A DNA stretch of 64,000 bases, taken from contig NZ_CP047420.1 of NCBI RefSeq assembly GCF_009866655.1, forward strand, positions 2,976,001 through 3,040,000, in the 5' to 3' direction. Under the pieces are notes generated by a model that worked only from the letters and a program-made list of their open reading frames with translations, did no database searches and was not told where the DNA came from. A program made the translations under genes and the position numbers. Position 1 is the first letter of the stretch; each line of letters begins with the position of its first letter. Shown one piece after another: positions 4,956 to 14,520 of this stretch. The stretch comes from Rathayibacter sp. VKM Ac-2804. GTDB lineage: Bacteria; Actinomycetota; Actinomycetes; Actinomycetales; Microbacteriaceae.

Positions 4956-6374
4956 TCAGTCGACGGCGAGCGTCCCGCGCCGCACCTTGCCCGCGTCGTC
5001 GCGCAGCGGCGAGCGCTGGAGCCGCAGAGCCCGCGGCGCCCGCGAGCCGAGGTGCTCGCGCGCGAAGGCGAGCAGCTCCTCCTCCGTCACGTCGCTCTCC
5101 GCGATGTCCACCACCGCCTCCACCGCCTGGCCGAGCTCGGCGTCCGGGACGCCGAAGGCGACCGCGCCGCGCACCGCCGGGTGCTCCTCCAGCACCCGCT
5201 CGATCTCGGCCGGGTAGATGTTCACGCCACCGCGCAGGATCTGGTCGTCGGCCCGGTCGAGCACCGTCAGGTAGCCGTCCGCATCGACGGAGCCGAGGTC
5301 GCCGAGGGTGTCCCAGCCGTCCTCGGTCCGCTTCGACTCCCCACCGAGGTAGCGGTAGGTCGGCTCCCCACGGCGCAACTGCACGAGCCCCGGCTCGCCG
5401 ACCGCGCACTCCGACCCGTCCGACCGCAGCACCCGCAGCTCCGTGCCGCCGATCGGCCGGCCGACGCTCCCGGGCCGCTCGAGCCACTCGTCGCCGCGGA
5501 TCATCGTCAGCCCGTTCGACTCGCTGCCCGCGTAGACCTCGACGACCCGCTCCGCGCCGATCCACTCGATCAGCGCGCGCTTGTCCGCGGGCGGGCACGG
5601 CGAGCCGAGGTGCAGCACCGTCTCGAGCGAGGAGACGTCCACGTCCCGGTGCCCGGGCGTCCGCAGCAGCCGGTGGATCATCGTCGGCACCAGCAGCGCC
5701 CAGGTCACCCGGTGCTCCGCGATCGCCGCGAGCACCCGCGCCTCGTCGAAGCGCGGCAGGACCACCAGCCGCTGCCCGGTCAGCAGCCCGCGGAAGGCGT
5801 AGGTGAAGGTCGCGGAGTGGGTGAGCGGCCCGGCCACGAGCTGCACCCCCTCCCGAGGCAGGAAGGCCGCGACCGGCTGCGAGGGATCCATCAGCGCGGG
5901 CGCCGCCGCGAGCACGATCTTCGGCCGCCCGGTGCTGCCGGAGGAGGCGGGCGCCTTCCACGACGCAGCCCAGATGTCGGGCAGCTCGTCGTCCGGCAGC
6001 GCCGGGTCGGGCTCGAAGCCGGCGGGGACGAACGGCACGCCGTCGAGCTCGACCCCGATGCTCAGCGAGGGCCGCCCGAGCGCGCCCACCTCGGCGAGCT
6101 CCCGCGCCGACAGCCCGCGCGACAGCGGCTGCGGCGTCGCGCCCGCCTTCCAGATCGCCGCGCAGGCGAGCACCAGCTCGGCGCTGTTCGACAGCGAGAC
6201 CGCGACGAGCGAGTCCGGAGTGACGCCGAGCGCCGCGTAGGCGCGCGCGAGCCGGTTGGAGGCCCGGTCCAGGGCGCCCGCGGTCAGGGTCGCGTCATCG
6301 GCGACGACCACGACGCGCTCGGGGTCCTGCTCGGCGAGCGCCGAGAAGCAGCGCGAGAACGACCGGCGCATCAC
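4956..6374 (-). CDS. AMP-dependent acyl-CoA synthetase/ligase
   Basis: 472-residue ANL-superfamily ligase that activates a carboxylic acid as the acyl-adenylate and usually transfers it to CoA. The P-loop is ASSGSTGRPKIV (about residue 145), the adenine motif VYAGSESNGLT, the hinge motif GWDTLGDLGSVDADGYL followed by LDRADDQILRGGVNIYPAEIE, and the C-terminal catalytic Lys is in DDAGKVRRG. It is shorter than most family members (500-550). The start is GTG 6374 or ATG 6371; the upstream glycosyltransferase TGA is at 6371-6373, so the genes overlap and are coupled. It is the last gene of the Nit1C minus arm. Substrate unknown; the location suggests it acts on a product of that pathway, which is inference. 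Confidence 0.85.
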   Translation of the reverse strand: MMRRSFSRCFSALAEQDPERVVVVADDATLTAGALDRASNRLARAYAALGVTPDSLVAVSLSNSAELVLACAAIWKAGATPQPLSRGLSARELAEVGALGRPSLSIGVELDGVPFVPAGFEPDPALPDDELPDIWAASWKAPASSGSTGRPKIVLAAAPALMDPSQPVAAFLPREGVQLVAGPLTHSATFTYAFRGLLTGQRLVVLPRFDEARVLAAIAEHRVTWALLVPTMIHRLLRTPGHRDVDVSSLETVLHLGSPCPPADKRALIEWIGAERVVEVYAGSESNGLTMIRGDEWLERPGSVGRPIGGTELRVLRSDGSECAVGEPGLVQLRRGEPTYRYLGGESKRTEDGWDTLGDLGSVDADGYLTVLDRADDQILRGGVNIYPAEIERVLEEHPAVRGAVAFGVPDAELGQAVEAVVDIAESDVTEEELLAFAREHLGSRAPRALRLQRSPLRDDAGKVRRGTLAVD

Positions 6375-7486
6375 ACGCCCACGGATCGGCGGCCGAGGTG
6401 AGCCCGGTACAGCGCCTCGTGACTCGCGGCGACGTCGTCCCAGGAGTGCGAGAACGCGAGGTCCCGCCCGGCCCCGGGCTCCGGCGCCTCCCCCGCGAGC
6501 GCCGCGGCGAGCGCCTCCCGGATCCCCGCCACGTCGCTCCCGTACGCCACCGTCTCCCCGAACACCTCTCGCAGCACCGGCAGATCACGCGCGACGACCG
6601 GCACCCCCGCGGCGAGCGCCTCCATCGCCGCCAGCCCGAAGCCCTCCTTGGTCGAGACGAAGCCGAGCACCGCCGCACCCGCGACGAGTGACGCGAGCCG
6701 CTCCTCCGGCACCGTGCCGAGCACGACCGGCGTCACCCCCCGCTCGGCCGCCCGGCGCTCGAACTCCTCGCGGTAGCCCCGGTAGTCGAAGAGCGTCTCC
6801 CCGCCGCCGAAGACCAGCGACGCGCCCGGCGCGAGCCCCGCGAACGCCTCCAGCAGGTCGATGCTGCCCTTCCGCGGCTCGATGCCGCCCAGCGCGAGCA
6901 CGTAGCGGCCGAGCTCGGCCCGCCACTCCCCCGCCGAGTCGCCGTCGGCCGCGGCGGCGAACCGCGCGGCGTCGACGCCGTTCGGAATCACCGCCGGCAG
7001 CCGCCCCCACCCCGCCGCGACCTCGTCCGCGACGGCCTGCGACACCGCGAGCAACCCGGCCGGTCCGGTGATCGCGCGCTCGTGGCAGGCGATCAGCGCC
7101 GGCGTCGTGAAGGCGTCCAGGTGGTGCACCGTGCGGAGCAGTCCGCCGGCCCCCGCGAAGCCCGCGTCGAGCGCGGCGTTCGCCGAGATGCAGTCCTGCG
7201 CGTGCACGACGTCCCACTCCCCGCCGTCCTCCCCCAGCGCCACCGCGAGCGCGTCGAGCGAGCGGACGATCCGGTCTCCGACGTCCTCCCCGTCGCGCGC
7301 CGCGAACGGCACGACCCGGACGGCCACCGCGCGGTCGACCGCGCGGAAGAAGGCGGAGTCGCCGCCGCGGCCGAGCGTCCAGACGGTCACCTCGTGCCCG
7401 CGCCGGGCCAGCGCCTCCGAGAGCGCGAGCGTGTGCACCACGCCGCCCCGGGGCTTCGTGGAGTAGGTCAGCTGCGCGATCCGCAC
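6371..7486 (-). CDS. MSMEG_0565-family glycosyltransferase (GT4 fold)
   Basis: 371-residue GT-B glycosyltransferase of family 4. The N-terminal STKPRGGVVHTLALSEAL motif is characteristic of the MSMEG_0565 family found only in Nit1C nitrilase clusters; VIPNGVDAARF and GGIEPRKGSIDLLEAF precede the donor-binding STKEGFGLAAMEALAAG, which has the E-x7-E pair of the family. I prefer GTG 7486 (ValArgIleAla) because AAGGAG lies seven bases upstream, matching relatives that start directly at this strand; a longer frame reaches 7531 without a ribosome site. It follows the nitrilase-like gene by 69 bases and overlaps the acyl-CoA ligase. The sugar donor and acceptor are unknown; it may glycosylate the small molecule made by the cluster. 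Confidence 0.85.
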   Translation of the reverse strand: MRIAQLTYSTKPRGGVVHTLALSEALARRGHEVTVWTLGRGGDSAFFRAVDRAVAVRVVPFAARDGEDVGDRIVRSLDALAVALGEDGGEWDVVHAQDCISANAALDAGFAGAGGLLRTVHHLDAFTTPALIACHERAITGPAGLLAVSQAVADEVAAGWGRLPAVIPNGVDAARFAAAADGDSAGEWRAELGRYVLALGGIEPRKGSIDLLEAFAGLAPGASLVFGGGETLFDYRGYREEFERRAAERGVTPVVLGTVPEERLASLVAGAAVLGFVSTKEGFGLAAMEALAAGVPVVARDLPVLREVFGETVAYGSDVAGIREALAAALAGEAPEPGAGRDLAFSHSWDDVAASHEALYRAHLGRRSVGV

Positions 7487-7555: not shown

Positions 7556-8410
7556 TCAGCCGGTGGGAGCCGCGCGGTGGTACGCGTGCTCGGCGCGGTC
7601 GCGCAGGTGGTCCATGCTGCGGCGGGCGCGGGCGACGGAGGCGGAGACGTCGTCGGTCGCGACGGCCAGCCCGCCCTTCGCCCAGGTCTTCGCGAGGATC
7701 TCGCCGGCCGGGTCGACGACCTTCGCCTGCCCGAGGAAGCGGAGCCCGCCGAGCACGCCGGTCTGGTTCGAGGAGACCAGATACACCTGGTTCTCCGCGG
7801 CGCGCGCGCAGTCGTAGAGGTCGAACAGGTGCGCCTGGCGGTCGTTCCGGATCCGGTCGGAGCGGTCGGTGACGCTGGCCGGCCAGGCGCTGAGGCAGCA
7901 GAGGATCTCGGCCCCGTCGAGGGCGAGGGAGCGCGCCGACTCCGGGAAGGTCTTGTCGAAGTCGATCATCATCCCGATCCGCCCCACGGCGGTGTCGAAG
8001 GAGCGGAAGGAGTCGCCGGCCGCGTACGCCTCCGACTCGCCCAGCGGCAGGTGCACCTTCCGGTGCGTCCCGATCACCTCGCCGCCCTGCACGCAGACCG
8101 CCGAGTTGTAGCGCCGCACCTCGCCGCCCTCGAGCGCGCGCTCCGCGATGCCGAAGCAGACGGTGGTGTCGCCCGCCATCGCCGCGACGGCCGCGACCTC
8201 CGGACCGTCGACCTCCACGGCCTGCGGCAGGTCGTCGGGGCCGGGGTGGTGCATGTCGAGGAGGTAGCCGCCGAGGGTCGCGTCCGGCAGCACCAGCAGG
8301 TCGATCCCGCGCTCCTGCGCGCTCGCGATCATGCCGGGCAGCTTGACGAGGGTGCGCTCGATGTCGCGGCCGAAGTGCGCCGCGACCGCGGCCATCGTGA
8401 TCGTCGACAT
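7556..8410 (-). CDS. Nitrilase-superfamily protein lacking catalytic Glu and Cys
   Basis: 284-residue carbon-nitrogen hydrolase fold protein, counterpart of MSMEG_0566 in the Nit1C cluster. Nitrilases use a Glu-Lys-Cys triad. Here the Glu motif reads LLVLPDATLGGYL, so Glu is Asp43 (codon 8282-8284); the Lys is kept (THRKVHLPLGE, Lys118); and the nucleophile motif reads IGMMIDFDKTFPE, so Cys is Asp150 (codon 7961-7963). The paralogue three genes upstream keeps all three. The fold is otherwise intact through AAENQVYLVSSNQTG. The ATG at 8410 follows GAGAAGGACC. Without a cysteine, normal amide or nitrile hydrolysis is unlikely; a binding, regulatory or different catalytic role is more probable. 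The 113 bases before it (8411-8523) show no feature. Confidence 0.85.
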   Translation of the reverse strand: MSTITMAAVAAHFGRDIERTLVKLPGMIASAQERGIDLLVLPDATLGGYLLDMHHPGPDDLPQAVEVDGPEVAAVAAMAGDTTVCFGIAERALEGGEVRRYNSAVCVQGGEVIGTHRKVHLPLGESEAYAAGDSFRSFDTAVGRIGMMIDFDKTFPESARSLALDGAEILCCLSAWPASVTDRSDRIRNDRQAHLFDLYDCARAAENQVYLVSSNQTGVLGGLRFLGQAKVVDPAGEILAKTWAKGGLAVATDDVSASVARARRSMDHLRDRAEHAYHRAAPTG

Positions 8411-8523: not shown

Positions 8524-9798
8524 TCACCGTACCGCGGCGCCCTCGAGCCGGTCCAACCGCGCGCCGCCGAGCAGTTGCTGCACCACGTGCTCCGCATCCC
8601 GCGCGATCGCCTCGAAGCGACCGGAGCCCCAGGTGTTCAGCCAGGGCAGCCCGAGGAAGTGCAGCCCGGGCACGGCGGTCGCGCCGCGCCGGTGGGTGGG
8701 GTGCCCCGCGCCGTCGAAGACGCCGATCTGCATCCAGGAGTAGTCGGCCCGGAAGCCGACCGCCCAGACGATGCTCGTGATCCCGGCGGCCGCCAGGTCG
8801 AGCTCCTCGATCTCGCGCTCCGGCCGCCAGACCGGCGCGTACCGGGCCTCGGTCGGCGCCTGGATGCCCGAGCGCTCGATGTAGGCGTCGATGTCGTTCT
8901 TGATCGACTCCGCCACCGAGTCCGCGTAGTCGAGCGACGCCTCCGCCGTCGGCGCGAAGCAGAGCGACGCACCGTCGACCTGCTGCAGCCGGCCGTAGAG
9001 CGTCATCCCGTCCCGCGCGAACGCACGCAGATCGATGTCGCGGCCGCCGCCGCGCCCGGTGACGTAGTGGTTGGTCGACTCCCGCTTGGAGAGCCCGCCG
9101 ACCTGCGCGTGGACGGGCACGTCGTAGACGCCCATGTCGGCGAGCCAGGCCACGCAGTCGCGCCCGCGGTAGAAGCGGGCGACCCGCGGAGCGGTGCCCA
9201 GCGCCAGGTGCACGTCGCGCCCCTCGAGGAAGAGGTCCTCCGCGATCTGCGCGCCGGACTGGCCGGAGCCGACCACGAGCACCCCGCCCTCGGGCAGCGC
9301 CGCGGCCGAGCGGTAGTCCGCCGAGTGCAGCTGGACGATCGCGTCCGGGATGCGGTGCGCGACCGCCGGCAGCACCGGCCGGTGGTAGCCGCCGGTGGCG
9401 ACGACGACCTGGTCCGCCGTGATCGTGCCGCGCGAGGTGACGATCTCGAAGGCCCCGTCGGCGCCCTCGCGCAGCCGCAGCACCTCGGTGTCCTCGGCCA
9501 CCGGCGCGCCGAACGACTCGGCGTAGCGCCGCACCCAGGCGTGCACCTCGTCGCGGGTCATGAAGCCGTCCGGGTCGTCGCCGTCGTAGGGGTAGCCGGG
9601 CAGCCGGCACTGCCAGTTCGGCGTGACGAGCGTGAAGTTGTCCCAGCGGCGGTCGATCCAGTCGTGCGCGATGGTGTCGCGCTCGATCACGAGGTGCTCG
9701 ATCCCCTGGTCCGTGAGCAGGCGGCTGATCGACAGCCCGGCCTGGCCGGCGCCGATCACGGCGACCGGGAGGTGCCGGCCGCTCTCGAGCGCGGTCAC
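8524..9798 (-). CDS. MSMEG_0569-family flavin-dependent oxidoreductase
   Basis: 424-residue FAD/NADPH-dependent oxidoreductase resembling flavin monooxygenases. The FAD-binding VIGAGQAGLSISRLL starts at about residue 14, and the second dinucleotide site VLVVGSGQSGAQIAEDL at about residue 170; VVVATGGYHRP and SIVWAVGFRADY are the ATG-type motifs joining the domains. This architecture is that of the MSMEG_0569 family, named from nitrilase clusters. Its ATG overlaps the end of the MSMEG_0570 gene by four bases, indicating coupled translation. It probably oxidises an intermediate of the cluster, for example by N- or C-hydroxylation; the substrate is not known. Family assignment is strong. Confidence 0.88.
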   Translation of the reverse strand: MTALESGRHLPVAVIGAGQAGLSISRLLTDQGIEHLVIERDTIAHDWIDRRWDNFTLVTPNWQCRLPGYPYDGDDPDGFMTRDEVHAWVRRYAESFGAPVAEDTEVLRLREGADGAFEIVTSRGTITADQVVVATGGYHRPVLPAVAHRIPDAIVQLHSADYRSAAALPEGGVLVVGSGQSGAQIAEDLFLEGRDVHLALGTAPRVARFYRGRDCVAWLADMGVYDVPVHAQVGGLSKRESTNHYVTGRGGGRDIDLRAFARDGMTLYGRLQQVDGASLCFAPTAEASLDYADSVAESIKNDIDAYIERSGIQAPTEARYAPVWRPEREIEELDLAAAGITSIVWAVGFRADYSWMQIGVFDGAGHPTHRRGATAVPGLHFLGLPWLNTWGSGRFEAIARDAEHVVQQLLGGARLDRLEGAAVR

Positions 9799-10121
9799 GC
9801 GCGCATCCCCTGCCCGGACGCGGGGACGGAGGACGGAGGGAGCGGCGGATCCATCGCCAGCACCCGCACCCGCCCGCCGTCGAAGCGCGCGGCGGCCGCG
9901 AGGATCTCCGACTCCTGCTGCAGCGCGGAGGTGCAGGCGAAGCCGAACTTCGCGCGCACCCGCTCGCTCGCCAGCCGCAGCGCCTCGGTCGAGCGCCCGA
10001 CGAAGTCCTCGAGCGGGTAGCTCTCGCCCTCGGCGAGGTAGTCGTGCATCACCAGGCTCGGCGAGTAGCAGCGCTCCTCGACGCCGTCCGGCCAGCGGAC
10101 GTGGAAGGTCATCTCAGGCAT
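9795..10121 (-). CDS. MSMEG_0570-family nitrogen starvation response protein
   Basis: 108-residue protein of the small MSMEG_0570 family, found next to Nit1 nitrilases. It opens MPEMTFHVRWPDGVEERCYSPSL, has the conserved DYLAEGESYPLEDFVGRS segment, and a RVRAKFGFACTSA motif with a conserved Cys. No signal peptide, membrane segment or known enzyme fold is seen. It overlaps the nitrilase gene upstream by eight bases and the flavoprotein gene downstream by four, so stoichiometric co-translation is likely. The function is unknown; the compact size and fixed location suggest a subunit or carrier for a neighbouring enzyme. The tail after about residue 90 (Pro/Ser-rich) is probably disordered. Confidence 0.88.
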   Translation of the reverse strand: MPEMTFHVRWPDGVEERCYSPSLVMHDYLAEGESYPLEDFVGRSTEALRLASERVRAKFGFACTSALQQESEILAAAARFDGGRVRVLAMDPPLPPSSVPASGQGMRA

Positions 10122-10992
10122 GGACCAGCCCTCCGCTCCAGACGCGGTCGATGTCGTAGGCGTCCGGCCGGCGGTCGCGGAGGTGGAACATCCCGCCGCG
10201 CATCGCCTCGAAGGTGCCGCGCACGTCGATGTCGGCGACCGCCATGCCCGAGCCGAGCAGCGTCGTCGCGAGGATGTTGCCGCCCGGATCGACGACCTTC
10301 GCGTTGCCCACGTAGCGCAGCGACCCGAAGGTGCCGGACTGGTTCGACGCCAGCCAGAACACCTGGTTGTCCAGCGCCCGGGCGATGTCGAACTGGTTGA
10401 AGCGGTAGGTCCAGCGGTCCTCCTGCAGGTTCTCCGCCGTCGCCGTCCGCGCGGCCGGCCAGGCGGAGAGCGAGGCGATGATCTCCGCCCCGTCCAGCGC
10501 CATCGAGCGGGCCGCCTCCGGGAAGGCCTTGTCGTAGCAGATCTGCAGCCCGACCCGGCCGACCGGGGTCTCGAAGACCGAGTAGCCGGGTCCGGGCGAG
10601 TACGACATGTGCTCGCCGAGCGGCTGGTGCACCTTGCGGTAGCTGCCGTAGATCTGCCCGCCGTCGAGCAGGGCGGCCGCGTTGTAGCGGGTCTCGCCGT
10701 CCGCGTCGAGCTCGCAGAAGCCGATCGCGACCAGCAGGTCGCCGGCGATCTCCTGCACCCGGCGCAGCTCCGGCCCGTCCAGCGCGATCGCCGGGGGCAT
10801 CGAGCGGGTGGTCGTCTTGACGGTGTCGCCGTGGTTGCCGAGGGAGGAGAGGTAGCCGCCGATCGCGGCCTCGGGCAGGACGAGGAACTCGACCCGCTTC
10901 TCGCGGGCCTCCTCGGCCAGCGCGGCGATGAGCGCGTAGTTCTGATCGAGGTCGCGGGTGAAGTTCGCCGCGACCGATCCGACGACGGTCAT
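10114..10992 (-). CDS. Nit1-type nitrilase (Nit1C cluster)
   Basis: 292-residue nitrilase of the Sll0784/MSMEG_0571 branch. The catalytic triad is intact: Glu41 in FLVLPEAAIGGYL, Lys in GSYRKVHQPLGE (about residue 119) and Cys152 in LQICYDKAFPEAARS. Length and the NQFDIARALDNQVFWLASNQSG segment match the family. Nit1 enzymes hydrolyse nitriles to acids or amides in a spiral homo-oligomer; the physiological nitrile of the Nit1C cluster is not settled, although related clusters have been tied to cyanide assimilation in Pseudomonas. The gene starts nine bases after the MSMEG_0572 stop and overlaps the MSMEG_0570 gene. It is presumably the hydrolytic core enzyme of this cluster. Confidence 0.9.
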   Translation of the reverse strand: MTVVGSVAANFTRDLDQNYALIAALAEEAREKRVEFLVLPEAAIGGYLSSLGNHGDTVKTTTRSMPPAIALDGPELRRVQEIAGDLLVAIGFCELDADGETRYNAAALLDGGQIYGSYRKVHQPLGEHMSYSPGPGYSVFETPVGRVGLQICYDKAFPEAARSMALDGAEIIASLSAWPAARTATAENLQEDRWTYRFNQFDIARALDNQVFWLASNQSGTFGSLRYVGNAKVVDPGGNILATTLLGSGMAVADIDVRGTFEAMRGGMFHLRDRRPDAYDIDRVWSGGLVHA

Positions 10993-11001
10993 GGCGTCGG
11001 C

Positions 11002-11571
11002 CTAGAGGTTGTAGGTCGAGTTGATGATGGCGCCCTTGCGGGCGTAGTGGATGACGGCGTCCTGGACGTCGAGCGGGTGGCAGGGGATGGTGCCCTCGAT
11101 CAGGTCCTCCTCGCGCAGACCGTGCAGCGCCATGCCGAAGCGGCAGACGAAGACGCGGTTGCCCTCGTCGATGAAGGTCTTCAGAGCGTCGTTGATGTTC
11201 TGCTCGCCGGGGAAGCCGGAGTCGCCTACGGTCGGGAAGCCGCGGGTCGCCATCGCGTTGATCGTGCCGGGGCCGTAGAAGTAGACGGCCGACTCGAAGC
11301 CCTTGCGAGCCGCGCGGGTCGCCTGCAGGATCGCGACGAAGCTGACCGAGGACTCGTGCGCGATGCCGTGCACGAGCGTGAAGTAGGACTGGCCGGGCTC
11401 GGCCTGGTAGTCGGGGAAGACCTTGGTGGAGCCGTAGAGGTTGCTGCCCTTGGGCAGCGAGGGGTGCGCGATCTCGGAGCGCGACTTCTCGATGTTCGCG
11501 CTGATCTGCTCCTCGATCGAGGCCTGGTCGTCGCTGCTGTGGTCGGCGGGGGTGGTCTGGTCGTCGGTCAT
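11002..11571 (-). CDS. MSMEG_0572/Sll0783-family nitrogen starvation response protein
   Basis: 189-residue protein of the MSMEG_0572/Sll0783 family, named because the Synechocystis member responds to nitrogen starvation. The first ~35 residues are acidic and probably disordered; then come SEIAHPSLPKGSNLYGSTKVFPDY and FTLVHGIAHESSVSFVAILQATRAARKGFESAVYFYGPGTIN, resembling DsrE-like small Rossmann folds (my impression). FVCRFGMALHG holds a single conserved Cys. It is the first gene of the minus arm, 379 bases from the divergent radical SAM gene, with GAACCTC-type ribosome site weak but AGGTTCTC present before ATG 11571. A direct role in the nitrile pathway or in sensing it is likely but unproven. 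Confidence 0.88.
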   Translation of the reverse strand: MTDDQTTPADHSSDDQASIEEQISANIEKSRSEIAHPSLPKGSNLYGSTKVFPDYQAEPGQSYFTLVHGIAHESSVSFVAILQATRAARKGFESAVYFYGPGTINAMATRGFPTVGDSGFPGEQNINDALKTFIDEGNRVFVCRFGMALHGLREEDLIEGTIPCHPLDVQDAVIHYARKGAIINSTYNL

Positions 11572-11950: not shown

Positions 11951-13135
11951 ATGACCGATCTGCAGACGCCCCGCTTCCGCACCGCCGATCCCGCCCCCGT
12001 CTCCCCCGCCGACTCCGACGCTGCCGGCTCCTGCGCCGCCGACGCCTGCGGCTCGGCGCCCGTCCGGCGCACCGGCTCCTCCGCCCTGCGCACCCGCGTC
12101 GACATCGCCCTGCAGGGCATCCGCGTCGACGCCCCCGTGCACCGCGAGGCCGGCGCCGGCCCGAGCGACGACGGGCACGTGATGCTCGGCGGCCTCGGCG
12201 CCGCCATCCCCGTGAACCCGAAGAGCCCCTACGCCGTCACCAACGGCCGGCTCCTCCTCGACGGCGCCGACATCGGCCTCGACGTCGAGCCGGTGAAGCG
12301 CCCGCGCTTCTACGACCTCAGCACCGCCGACGGCGTCTCCTACGAGAAGATCGCCCGCCTGCACGGCCGGAACATCCTGGCCACCACCGTCGTGCAGACC
12401 TGCATGCGCTACGACGAGGCCGAGCGCTGCCGCTTCTGCGCGATCGAGGCCTCGCTCGCCAACGACTCCACCATCGCCGTGAAGACCCCCGCGCAGCTCG
12501 CCGAGGTCGCCGAGGCCGCCGCCCGGCTGGACGGCATCCGCCAGATGGTGATGACCACCGGCACCTCGAAGGGCCGTGACCGCGGCGCCCGGCACCTGGC
12601 CCGCTGCGTCCGCGCGGTGCTGCAGGCCGTCCCCGGGCTGCCGATCCAGGTGCAGTGCGAGCCGCCCGAGGACCTCGCCGCCCTGCAGGAGCTGAAGGAC
12701 GCCGGCGCCCTCTCGATCGGCATCCACATCGAGTCGATGGACGACGACATCCGCCGCCGCTGGACCCCCGGCAAGGCGCGCGTCTCGACCGCGAAGTACT
12801 GGGAGGCCTGGGACGAGGCGGTGCGGATCTTCGGCCGCAACCAGGTCTCGACGTACCTCCTCGTCGGCCTGGGCGAGGACCCGGACGAGCTGGTCGCCAG
12901 CGCCGGCGAGCTGATCGAGCGCGGGATCTACCCGTTCGTGGTGCCGTTCCGGCCGCTCAAGGGCACGCTGGCGACGGAGGTGGACCACGTCCTGCCGCCG
13001 GCCGGCTCGCTGCTGGAGAAGGTCAGCGAGCAGGTCGCCGCGCTGCTGATCGCCGCCGGGATGCTCTCCTCCGGGCAGAAGGCGGGCTGCGCGGCCTGCG
13101 GTGCCTGCGGTGTGCTGAAGACCGCCGGCGCCTGA
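11951..13135 (+). CDS. MSMEG_0568-family radical SAM protein
   Basis: 394-residue radical S-adenosylmethionine enzyme of the Nit1C cluster. The iron-sulfur motif is Cys151, Cys160, Cys163 (CMRYDEAERCRFC), that is C-x8-C-x2-C rather than the usual C-x3-C-x2-C, followed by AIEASL. MVMTTGTSKG is the SAM-binding Gly-rich strand, and GIHIESMDDDIRRRW and STYLLVGLGEDPDEL are later barrel strands. The C-terminus ends with a second cysteine cluster, GCAACGACG (C-x2-C-x2-C), which may bind another cluster. The first ~45 residues are low complexity. GAGGAGCACC precedes the ATG. The stop overlaps the next gene by one base. It probably makes or modifies the cluster's substrate by radical chemistry; the reaction is unknown. 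Confidence 0.88.
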   Translation: MTDLQTPRFRTADPAPVSPADSDAAGSCAADACGSAPVRRTGSSALRTRVDIALQGIRVDAPVHREAGAGPSDDGHVMLGGLGAAIPVNPKSPYAVTNGRLLLDGADIGLDVEPVKRPRFYDLSTADGVSYEKIARLHGRNILATTVVQTCMRYDEAERCRFCAIEASLANDSTIAVKTPAQLAEVAEAAARLDGIRQMVMTTGTSKGRDRGARHLARCVRAVLQAVPGLPIQVQCEPPEDLAALQELKDAGALSIGIHIESMDDDIRRRWTPGKARVSTAKYWEAWDEAVRIFGRNQVSTYLLVGLGEDPDELVASAGELIERGIYPFVVPFRPLKGTLATEVDHVLPPAGSLLEKVSEQVAALLIAAGMLSSGQKAGCAACGACGVLKTAGA

Positions 13136-14520
13136 TGGAGCTCTCGATCCTCGAGGGGGTCCGGGCGGTCGCGCCGGCCGCCCGCGACGCCTTCGTGGTC
13201 GTGGTCGCGGACCCGGCGGAGGTGTCCGCGTACCGCGCGCTGCGCCGCGAGGTCTTCGTCGGCGAGCAGGGCCTCTTCGACGCCGACGACCGCGATGCGC
13301 TCGACGAGGATCCGCGCACCGTCGTGCTGGTCGCCCGCTCGGCCGACGGCGTGCTCGGCGGCGTGCGGATCGCGCCCGCGCTCGAGCAGGACCTCGGCTG
13401 GTGGACCGGCAGTCGGCTGGTCGTCCGCCGCAGTGCCCGCGGCGGCGCCGGGATCGGGGCCGCTCTGGTCCGGGCCGCCTGCGCCGAGGCCGAGGCGCGC
13501 GGCGTGCTCCGCTTCGAGGCGACGGTGCAGACGCAGAACGAGGTGCTCTTCCGCCGGCTCGGCTGGGACCGGCTCGGCGCCGTCGAGGTCGCGGGGACTC
13601 CCCACGTGCGGATGCGCTGGCCGATCGACCGGTTCGACCGCCTCGCGCGCGGTGCGAAGGCCGCGCTCGGTCCGCTGCTCGACGCCTTCGCCGGGCAGCT
13701 CGGCGGACCGGGCTTCCGCGGCGACGACGGCGCGCCCGTCCCCGGCTCCGACCTCGTCGCCGTCTGCGACGCGATCGTCCCCTCGATGGTCGAGCGCGAC
13801 CCGGAGTGGGCGGGCTGGTGCTCGGTGCTCGTCAACGTCAACGACCTCACCGCGATGGGCGCGGACCCGGTCGGCCTGCTCGACGCGGTCGGCGCGCGCG
13901 ACGCCTCCTTCGCCGCCCGCGTCCTCCGCGGCCTGCGCGCCGGCGCCGAGGCCTGGGGCGTGCCGCTGCTCGGCGGGCACACCCAGCTCGGCGTCCCGGC
14001 TGCACTCTCCGTCACCGGCCTCGGCCGCACCGCGCGGCCGGTCCCGGGCAGCGCTCCGGTCGGGCACGAGCTGAGCCTCACCGCGGACCTCGCGGGCGGC
14101 TGGCGCCCGGGCTACGCCGGCCTGCAGTGGGACTCGACCTCGGAGCGCCCGCCGGAGGTGCTCCGCGCCCTCGCGGCGAGCATCGGCGCCGGCGCGCCCG
14201 ACGGCGCGAAGGACGTCAGCATGGCGGGCCTCGTCGGCACCGTCGGCATGCTCGCCGAGGCGTCCGGCGCGGGCGCCGACATCGAGGTCGCCGCGATCCC
14301 CCGCCCGGCCGCCGCGGGCCTCGCCGACTGGCTCTCCTGCTTCCCCGGCTTCGCGATGCTCACCGCCGACCGCCCCGGCGCCTCCGGCATGGGAACGCCG
14401 CACACGACGACCGCCGCCATCGGCCGCGTCGTCCCCGGCGAGGGCGTGACCCTCCGCTGGCCCGACGGCGAGACCACCCCGGCGATCACCTCCGCCGTCA
14501 CCCGCCTCGGCGCCGCCTGA
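13135..14520 (+). CDS. GNAT acetyltransferase / AIR synthase-like fusion (MSMEG_0567/Sll0787)
   Basis: 461-residue two-domain protein. Residues 1-160 form a GNAT acyltransferase: YRALRREVFVGEQGLFD, VVLVARSADGVLGGVRIAP and the acetyl-CoA loop VRRSARGGAGIGAALVRAA. Residues ~165-461 resemble the AIR synthase/PurM-type ATP-binding fold: VCDAIVPSMVERDPEWAGWCSVLVNVNDLTAMGADPVGLLDAV and LLGGHTQLGVPAALSVTGLG, with DVSMAGLVGTVGMLAEASGAGADIEV near the end. Cyanobacteria encode related functions in separate genes. The ATG overlaps the radical SAM stop (TGATG), so the two are coupled. The pairing of an acyltransferase with an amide- or ring-forming ATPase points to building a small molecule, not merely degrading a nitrile; this is inference. 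Confidence 0.85.
   Translation: MELSILEGVRAVAPAARDAFVVVVADPAEVSAYRALRREVFVGEQGLFDADDRDALDEDPRTVVLVARSADGVLGGVRIAPALEQDLGWWTGSRLVVRRSARGGAGIGAALVRAACAEAEARGVLRFEATVQTQNEVLFRRLGWDRLGAVEVAGTPHVRMRWPIDRFDRLARGAKAALGPLLDAFAGQLGGPGFRGDDGAPVPGSDLVAVCDAIVPSMVERDPEWAGWCSVLVNVNDLTAMGADPVGLLDAVGARDASFAARVLRGLRAGAEAWGVPLLGGHTQLGVPAALSVTGLGRTARPVPGSAPVGHELSLTADLAGGWRPGYAGLQWDSTSERPPEVLRALAASIGAGAPDGAKDVSMAGLVGTVGMLAEASGAGADIEVAAIPRPAAAGLADWLSCFPGFAMLTADRPGASGMGTPHTTTAAIGRVVPGEGVTLRWPDGETTPAITSAVTRLGAA

What the first reader, a model, noticed from the sequence alone, without database searches (positions are those of the whole stretch)
7556..8410. Nitrilase paralogue with both catalytic residues replaced by Asp
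The second nitrilase-fold protein of the cluster has Asp43 where nitrilases have the catalytic Glu and Asp150 where they have the nucleophilic Cys (codons 8282-8284 and 7961-7963), yet keeps Lys118 and the fold, and sits in a tightly packed operon with an intact Nit1. Two independent, chemically similar substitutions suggest retained function other than thiol hydrolysis: a structural partner of the Nit1 filament, a sensor, or new acid-base chemistry. I saw the substitutions directly; the role is inference.
Basis: partly seen in the sequence, partly recalled or inferred. Interest (0 to 1): 0.75.

Follow-up and report, generated by a model that had tools for sequence, protein, structure and literature searches.

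The report
Conserved cysteine-less nitrilase twin
A nitrilase-like protein that has lost the family's reactive cysteine belongs to an old, well-preserved protein family in actinobacteria, usually encoded beside an intact nitrilase-like enzyme, so it is not a decaying gene and probably works as that enzyme's partner or does another, non-cysteine job.

Summary
Window 7556-8410 (-) encodes a 284-aa nitrilase-fold protein ("NitD") with Asp43, Lys118, Glu125 and Asp150 where active relatives have Glu, Lys, Glu, Cys. It is not a local accident. In 103 NitD-type sequences from Actinomycetota (the window's own included; the others 53-99% identical to it), residue 150 is Asp in 100 and Ser in 3, never Cys. 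Residue 43 is Asp in 95, Gly in 7, Gln in 1, never Glu. Lys118 is kept in 103 and Glu125 in 102. In trees they form one clade beside Glu/Lys/Glu/Cys proteins. dN/dS matches that of the intact paralogue ("NitC"), so decay is very unlikely.

In a class-wide sample 32 of 33 genomes with NitD also hold NitC. NitD and NitC are the most strongly co-evolving pair among seven cluster proteins, without sign of gene conversion. Best reading: a non-thiol pseudoenzyme partner of NitC that keeps a Lys/Glu/Asp pocket (0.5). Main rival: a self-standing non-thiol enzyme or binder.

Two corrections: the intact neighbour is not Nit6803/Nit1-type (39.5 bits, cut-off 502.6); and since residue 43 drifts to Gly or Gln, Asp150 rather than the Asp/Asp pair is the hallmark.

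The parts
7556..8410 (-). NitD: nitrilase-fold paralogue (MSMEG_0566 position) with D43/K118/E125/D150
8282..8284 (-). codon of Asp43, at the site of the catalytic Glu; Asp 95, Gly 7, Gln 1 of 103
8057..8059 (-). codon of Lys118, kept in 103 of 103
8036..8038 (-). codon of Glu125 (second Glu), kept in 102 of 103 (Asp in one)
7961..7963 (-). codon of Asp150, at the site of the nucleophilic Cys; Asp 100, Ser 3 of 103
10114..10992 (-). NitC: intact paralogue E41/K120/E127/C152 (MSMEG_0571 position)
   Evidence: TIGR04048 only 39.5 bits vs 502.6
9795..10121 (-). MSMEG_0570 family nitrogen starvation response protein
   Evidence: TIGR04042 125.6 bits, over cut-off
8524..9798 (-). MSMEG_0569 family flavin-dependent oxidoreductase
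   Evidence: TIGR04046 631.7 bits, over cut-off
6371..7486 (-). MSMEG_0565 family glycosyltransferase (GTG start at 7486 chosen by me)
   Evidence: TIGR04047 405.6 bits, over cut-off; sequence
11002..11571 (-). MSMEG_0572/Sll0783 family protein
   Evidence: TIGR04044 242.3 bits, over cut-off
11951..13135 (+). MSMEG_0568 family radical SAM protein (divergent)
   Evidence: TIGR04043 496.5 bits, over cut-off
13201..14520 (+). MSMEG_0567-type GNAT/AIR-synthase-like fusion (matched part of ORF 12655-14520)
   Evidence: TIGR04050 435.7 and TIGR04045 116.9 bits, both over cut-off
4956..6374 (-). acyl-CoA ligase-like gene; found with the glycosyltransferase in 59 of 109 loci
   Evidence: PF00501; gene orders

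Best explanation
NitD is a conserved, non-thiol paralogue of the cluster's amidase/nitrilase-like enzyme NitC. SHOWN: it keeps the nitrilase fold (model), Lys118, Glu125 and 64 alignment sites that are near-fixed in both paralogues; it lost the Cys nucleophile, by the trees once and early, and has been under purifying selection since; it travels with NitC and co-evolves with it more than any other pair of the seven cluster proteins compared. INFERRED: it cannot form the thioester or thioimidate of the nitrilase mechanism; it assembles with NitC (heterodimer or mixed oligomer) as a pseudoenzyme subunit, in which Asp150, paired with Lys118 and perhaps with Thr154 one helical turn on, holds the pocket in a charge-satisfied, non-reactive form that binds a ligand or shapes the partner's active site. 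This would work like known active/dead paralogue pairs (for example trypanosomal AdoMet decarboxylase and its prozyme), probably under nitrogen-starvation control as in the mycobacterial gpr cluster.
For: Conservation of D150 (100 of 103), K118 (103 of 103), E125 (102 of 103) over 53-99% identity. Origin: with columns 43/125/150 removed, the 60 D/S rows in the tree (of 103 sequences, thinned) fall on one side of one branch, SH-aLRT 94, next to Glu/Cys proteins of other classes (99 for 59 rows). Selection: median dN/dS 0.090 NitD against 0.082 NitC in the 33 closest pairs, 0.231 against 0.221 over the 650 pairs used; amino-acid distance ratio 1.01 over 1225 pairs. Partner: 32 of 33 NitD genomes in the class sample also hold the EKC paralogue (one as a fragment without the Glu region); NitC is in the same locus in 90 of 94 NitD loci of 7 kb or more. 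Co-evolution: partial correlation NitD-NitC 0.61, highest of 21 pairs, next FMO-SAM 0.43, top in 288 of 300 subsamples; no sign of gene conversion (own partner is best match in 1 of 51). Clade-specific fixed sites cluster in residues 183-205 (6 of 14; hypergeometric 3e-4, region chosen after the fact), helices that in this fold lie near a subunit interface (recalled). T154 is Thr in 101 of 102 NitD, in 1 of 108 EKC proteins. In nitrogen-starved M. smegmatis both cluster C-N hydrolase genes are GlnR-dependent: wild type over glnR mutant 8.94-fold (0566) and 48.04-fold (0571) (PMC4222082, section 6 read).
Against: NitC occurs without a found NitD in 16 of 49 class-sample genomes with a match (at most 6 candidates per genome were scored), so NitC does not always need it. 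One genome (G811) has NitD alone, with no cluster gene seen in the 16 kb read. A pure scaffold would not need Lys118 and Glu125 fixed; that leans towards a working pocket. Mirror-tree correlation can come from joint transfer or from shared rate patterns of paralogues. Q192, one of the interface-side marks, is already present in Glu/Cys proteins of other classes, so it may be ancestral. Only monomers were modelled; no interface or site geometry was computed, no coordinates were available.
Confidence: 0.5

Rival explanations
1. NitD is a self-standing ligand-binding protein or enzyme with non-thiol chemistry: Lys118, Glu125 and Asp150 form an acid-base (or metal-binding carboxylate) site that acts on a cluster intermediate, for example a hydration, isomerisation or amine/amidine binding step.
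For: K118 (103/103), E125 (102/103) and D150 (100/103) are kept; 64 alignment sites are at least 93% the same residue in both paralogues; NitD is alone in G811; 14 f95 genomes without an over-cut-off MSMEG_0569 flavoprotein also lack a found NitD, which could mean a shared step.
Against: Residue 43 drifts to Gly (7) and Gln (1), and residue 150 to Ser (3), so neither is strictly needed. The flavoprotein link rests mainly on one tree clade and has exceptions both ways (G975 and G819 have the flavoprotein without NitD; G806 and G811 the reverse), and several of the 14 hold flavoprotein relatives under the cut-off, up to 364 bits. NitD-FMO partial correlation is only 0.23.
Confidence: 0.3
2. NitD is still a hydrolase, with Asp150 as nucleophile (acyl-anhydride) or as base for a water, in the manner of Asp-nucleophile hydrolases.
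For: Asp150 aligns with the nucleophile site and Lys118 and Glu125 are intact; the modelled fold is that of amidases.
Against: Ser at 150 in 3, and no carboxylate at 43 in 8, of 103. Among the rows listed no title announces a natural Asp-for-Cys member; I judged by titles and four alignments only.
Confidence: 0.12
3. Simple decay of a redundant nitrilase.
For: Both residues of the hydrolytic mechanism are changed.
Against: No Glu43 or Cys150 in 103 sequences, dN/dS about that of NitC, old single origin by tree, full-length frames. C to D needs two base changes (TGC/TGT to GAC/GAT).
Confidence: 0.02

Closest known systems
M. smegmatis gpr cluster, MSMEG_0565-0572 (PMC6039565 passages; PMC4222082 passages and section 6)
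   Same: Same eight gene families by name, with two C-N hydrolase genes at the 0566 and 0571 positions; GlnR-controlled there.
   Different: There MSMEG_0566 is called a (putative) aliphatic amidase. I could not read MSMEG_0566 itself; the NitD-type proteins that I read, named Rhodococcus plasmid copies included, have no Cys at the site.
Nit1C cluster with Nit6803-type nitrilase (PMC1199592; passages read)
   Same: Radical SAM, GNAT, AIR-synthase-like, 0570, 0572 and flavoprotein families, over NCBIfam cut-offs here.
   Different: No TIGR04048 nitrilase over cut-off in the window's genome; another C-N hydrolase subfamily instead, plus NitD. The passages seen describe one nitrilase in a seven-gene cluster.
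N-carbamoylputrescine amidase and Pyrococcus PH0642/PaNit amidase
   Different: Those use Glu-Lys-Cys; NitD has Asp-Lys-Asp and scores far under their cut-offs (97.3 vs 410.25 bits for the carbamoylputrescine amidase model).
Dead/active paralogue pairs (AdoMet decarboxylase-prozyme, PMC5201418, start of abstract only)
   Same: A catalytically impaired paralogue kept with its active sister.
   Different: Activation or complex formation is unproven for NitD/NitC.

Membership tests
Nitrilase (C-N hydrolase) superfamily, by fold | PF00795 domain and alpha-beta-beta-alpha fold | tested here: met
Nitrilase superfamily, as thiol enzyme | catalytic Glu | tested here: not met
   Asp43; 0 of 103 have Glu
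Nitrilase superfamily, as thiol enzyme | catalytic Lys | tested here: met
   Lys118, 103 of 103
Nitrilase superfamily, as thiol enzyme | nucleophilic Cys | tested here: not met
   Asp150; 0 of 103 have Cys
Nit6803/Nit1 (TIGR04048) | score over 502.6 bits (NitD and NitC) | tested here: not met
   NitD 35.3, NitC 39.5 bits; none over cut-off in the own genome
Nit1C-type cluster | 0572, radical SAM, GNAT, AIR-like, 0570 and flavoprotein families together | tested here: met
   over cut-off via TIGR04044, 04043, 04045, 04050, 04042, 04046; the AIR-like part is met by TIGR04050, not by TIGR04049 (168.9 vs 321.3)
Nit1C cluster sensu PMC1199592 | subfamily 1 (Nit6803-type) nitrilase | tested here: not met
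   by the TIGR04048 cut-off
gpr cluster (M. smegmatis) | eight syntenic genes under GlnR | tested here: inconclusive
   gene families present, two of them divergent here; GlnR control not tested in this genome
Pseudoenzyme partner of NitC | no own hydrolase activity, and physical complex with NitC | not testable with these tools
   only co-occurrence and co-evolution

The most novel reading that the evidence does not exclude
NitD is an enzyme with new chemistry on the nitrilase scaffold: a Lys118/Glu125/Asp150 site that performs a non-covalent acid-base reaction on an unknown nitrogen-starvation metabolite, working side by side with NitC. It would be a class-wide case of a thiol hydrolase fold turned to thiol-free catalysis.
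Probability: 0.22. Interest if true: 0.85.

Novelty: new variant of a known kind. Interest (0 to 1): 0.6.

Why it matters
Annotated Rhodococcus copies are named 'carbon-nitrogen hydrolase family protein', and a paper on the mycobacterial gpr cluster calls its MSMEG_0566 member a putative aliphatic amidase. If the reading holds, such labels are wrong for a whole actinobacterial family, and models of what the Nit1C/gpr-type cluster does must include a dead or rewired subunit beside the active one: 32 of 49 class-sample genomes with a match carry the pair. The pair makes a direct test possible. My literature searches listed no paper whose title or abstract start describes this Asp-bearing paralogue; the library is open-access only, with no preprints.

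Tried and rejected
Decay: judged very unlikely. Gene conversion between the paralogues as cause of their correlation: not supported (within-genome identity 0.512, cross-genome 0.504). A first mirror-tree run mixed full ORFs and BLAST pieces (0.62); the uniform rerun (0.61) is the one cited. A tight NitD-flavoprotein link was considered and kept only as a weak lead, because the genomes lacking both fall mainly in one clade of the tree. The 0570 family was found in 4 of 26 genomes tested and is missing from several NitD genomes, so no link there. Four ORFs around the lone NitD of G811, picked mechanically, gave one thioesterase-like match and nothing else in Pfam. Phage and metagenome sets were not searched. 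Of the plasmid set, four Rhodococcus records and one Sinorhizobium record matched at E 1e-30; the latter has Glu/Cys. Phyla other than Actinomycetota were reached only by the plasmid search and by the one genome-contig scan, which works by exact peptide patterns of P0001; one of its six patterns contains Asp150 (a bias that the genome search samples do not have).

Rows dropped before counts: from 283 places 212 distinct ORFs were kept (duplicates merged, 2 fragments under 200 aa dropped). The tree used 118 of these after an 87% identity filter and a 240-aa limit; one search dropped L001 and added seven rows. dN/dS used 650 of 1225 pairs from 50 loci. The co-evolution test used 51 of 87 loci after removing near-copies. 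The tally of 103 is 102 distinct sequences plus L183; the 108 EKC proteins leave out L001 and one fragment.

Full report

THE CLUSTER. Around it lie, over NCBIfam cut-offs, MSMEG_0572, 0570, 0569 and 0565 families on the same strand and, divergently, the MSMEG_0568 radical SAM and MSMEG_0567 GNAT/AIR fusion. NitC is not the Nit6803/Nit1 nitrilase: TIGR04048 gives 39.5 bits against 502.6, and no gene of the genome passes that cut-off. So this looks like an actinobacterial form of a Nit1C-like cluster, with the families of the eight-gene gpr cluster of M. smegmatis (PMC6039565, passages). Contigs of the same sizes as Rathayibacter VKM Ac-2856/2857 contigs appear among 'same genus' genomes with 99% identical NitD, so the window is most likely Rathayibacter (inference).

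IS IT CONSERVED? Pooled loci gave 212 distinct nitrilase-like ORFs. NitD-type: 102, with D43-K118-E125-D150 in 91, Gly43 in 7, Gln43 in 1, Ser150 in 3. One search adds one from another class of the phylum (D-K-D-D). In total D150 is found in 100 of 103, S150 in 3, K118 in 103, E125 in 102, D43 in 95. None has Glu43 or Cys150. That is not true by definition: in the trees no Glu/Cys row falls inside the clade, and the three Glu/Cys proteins nearer to NitD than to NitC by score lie outside it where they are in the trees. The EKC paralogues keep Glu-Lys-Glu-Cys in 108 of 108. The hallmark is therefore residue 150 with the kept Lys/Glu, not the Asp/Asp pair.

ORIGIN. In the first tree (118 rows) the 59 NitD-type rows make one group, SH-aLRT 99. 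In the second (124 rows, trait columns 43/125/150 removed) the 60 D/S rows are on one side of one branch, support 94, and sit next to EKC proteins of other classes, supports 87 and 92. Both are quick trees rooted on one long-branched Glu/Cys outgroup row. The simplest story is one loss of Cys in an active ancestor, with later D43 to G (two changes on the tree), D43 to Q and D150 to S. Codons GAC/GAT at 150 against TGC/TGT mean two base changes.

SELECTION. Among 50 loci with both genes, median dN/dS (NG86) is 0.090 for NitD and 0.082 for NitC in the 33 closest pairs, 0.177 and 0.152 in the next 130, 0.246 and 0.236 in the next 487; distances of the two proteins correlate at 0.96 with median ratio 1.01. 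Pairs are not independent and the method is crude, but there is no sign of relaxation.

COMPANY. In the class sample (394 genomes) 49 have a match at E 1e-40: 32 have both paralogues, 16 only EKC, 1 only NitD. In the family sample (398 genomes) 32 match: 31 have a NitD-type gene, one (G658) a single 39% match whose site I did not read. In the phylum sample (396 genomes) 9 match: NitD is in the window's genome, three of its class and one of another class (G374, with a Glu/Cys partner in the same cluster); the other four, of other classes, have Glu/Cys proteins only. At most six candidates per genome were scored. In 94 loci of 7 kb or more with NitD, the next gene is the MSMEG_0565 glycosyltransferase in 85, and NitC is in the same locus in 90; three of the four others are short contig pieces, the fourth is the lone NitD of G811. 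In ten loci NitD directly follows NitC, which suits an origin by tandem duplication.

CO-EVOLUTION. For 51 non-redundant loci with seven cluster proteins, NitD-NitC has the highest partial correlation of distances, 0.61 (2.5-97.5% of subsamples 0.45-0.76), then FMO-SAM 0.43 and NitD-GT 0.30; it ranks first in 288 of 300 subsamples. In the commonest gene orders NitD lies nearer to the flavoprotein gene than to NitC, so linkage alone does not explain it. Joint transfer or shared rate patterns of paralogues could contribute.

CLADE MARKS. Fourteen sites are 93% or more one residue in NitD and have that residue in under 20% of EKC proteins: besides D150, T154 (101 of 102), and a cluster in residues 183-205 (R183, R186, Q192, L195, Y199, A205), six where 1.2 would be expected, p 3e-4, the region being chosen after the fact. 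Q192, L195 and Y199 are spaced to lie on one face of the predicted helix 191-207. EKC proteins mostly have W, R, F there. Six Glu/Cys proteins of other classes already have Gln at 192, so part of this may be ancestral. In nitrilases the corresponding helices are near the dimer interface (recalled, not computed here).

READING. Decay is very unlikely. A non-thiol partner of NitC fits co-occurrence, co-evolution and the helix marks; a self-standing non-thiol binder or enzyme fits the fixed Lys118/Glu125/Asp150 and the lone copy in G811. I give 0.5 to the partner, 0.3 to the rival, 0.12 to an Asp-based hydrolase.

LITERATURE. PMC4222082 (passages; section 6): in nitrogen-starved M. smegmatis, transcripts of MSMEG_0566 'aliphatic amidase' are 8.94-fold and of 0571 48.04-fold higher in wild type than in the glnR mutant; GlnR binds upstream of 0572. 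PMC6039565 (passages): the eight-gene cluster gives GlnR-dependent peroxide resistance; 0566 is a 'putative aliphatic amidase'. PMC1199592 (passages): Nit1C confined to subfamily 1 nitrilases, seven genes. The listings showed no title or abstract start on an Asp-bearing nitrilase paralogue; searches returned nothing.

Noticed in passing
window 10114-10121: The NitC stop codon TGA overlaps the start of the 0570 gene. PMC6039565 proposed that the UGA of MSMEG_0571 is read as selenocysteine; among 106 NitC ORFs here 104 end in TGA and 2 in TAG, which fits an ordinary overlapping stop/start at least as well.
   Followed up: partly
window 4956-6374: An acyl-CoA ligase-like gene accompanies the glycosyltransferase in 59 of 109 loci, suggesting that the cluster has an extra step there.
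   Followed up: partly
L104, L106, L107 (Rhodococcus plasmids): The cluster with both paralogues sits on large linear plasmids, with transposase genes on both sides in L104 and downstream in L106 and L107, so it may move.
   Followed up: no
L094, L095, L096 and L036-L038: A subclade of one genus has Ser at site 150 with Thr at 149, and keeps Asp43 and Thr154.
   Followed up: partly
L137:7390-8178: A lone NitD gene with no recognised cluster gene in 16 kb and no second match in its genome at E 1e-40.
   Followed up: partly
L139, L140, L142, L143, L145-L151, L153 (f95 genomes): Large-genome actinobacteria with a shortened cluster 572-SAM-GNATAIR-NitC-GT without NitD; their genomes show no 0570 gene and no over-cut-off flavoprotein.
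   Followed up: partly
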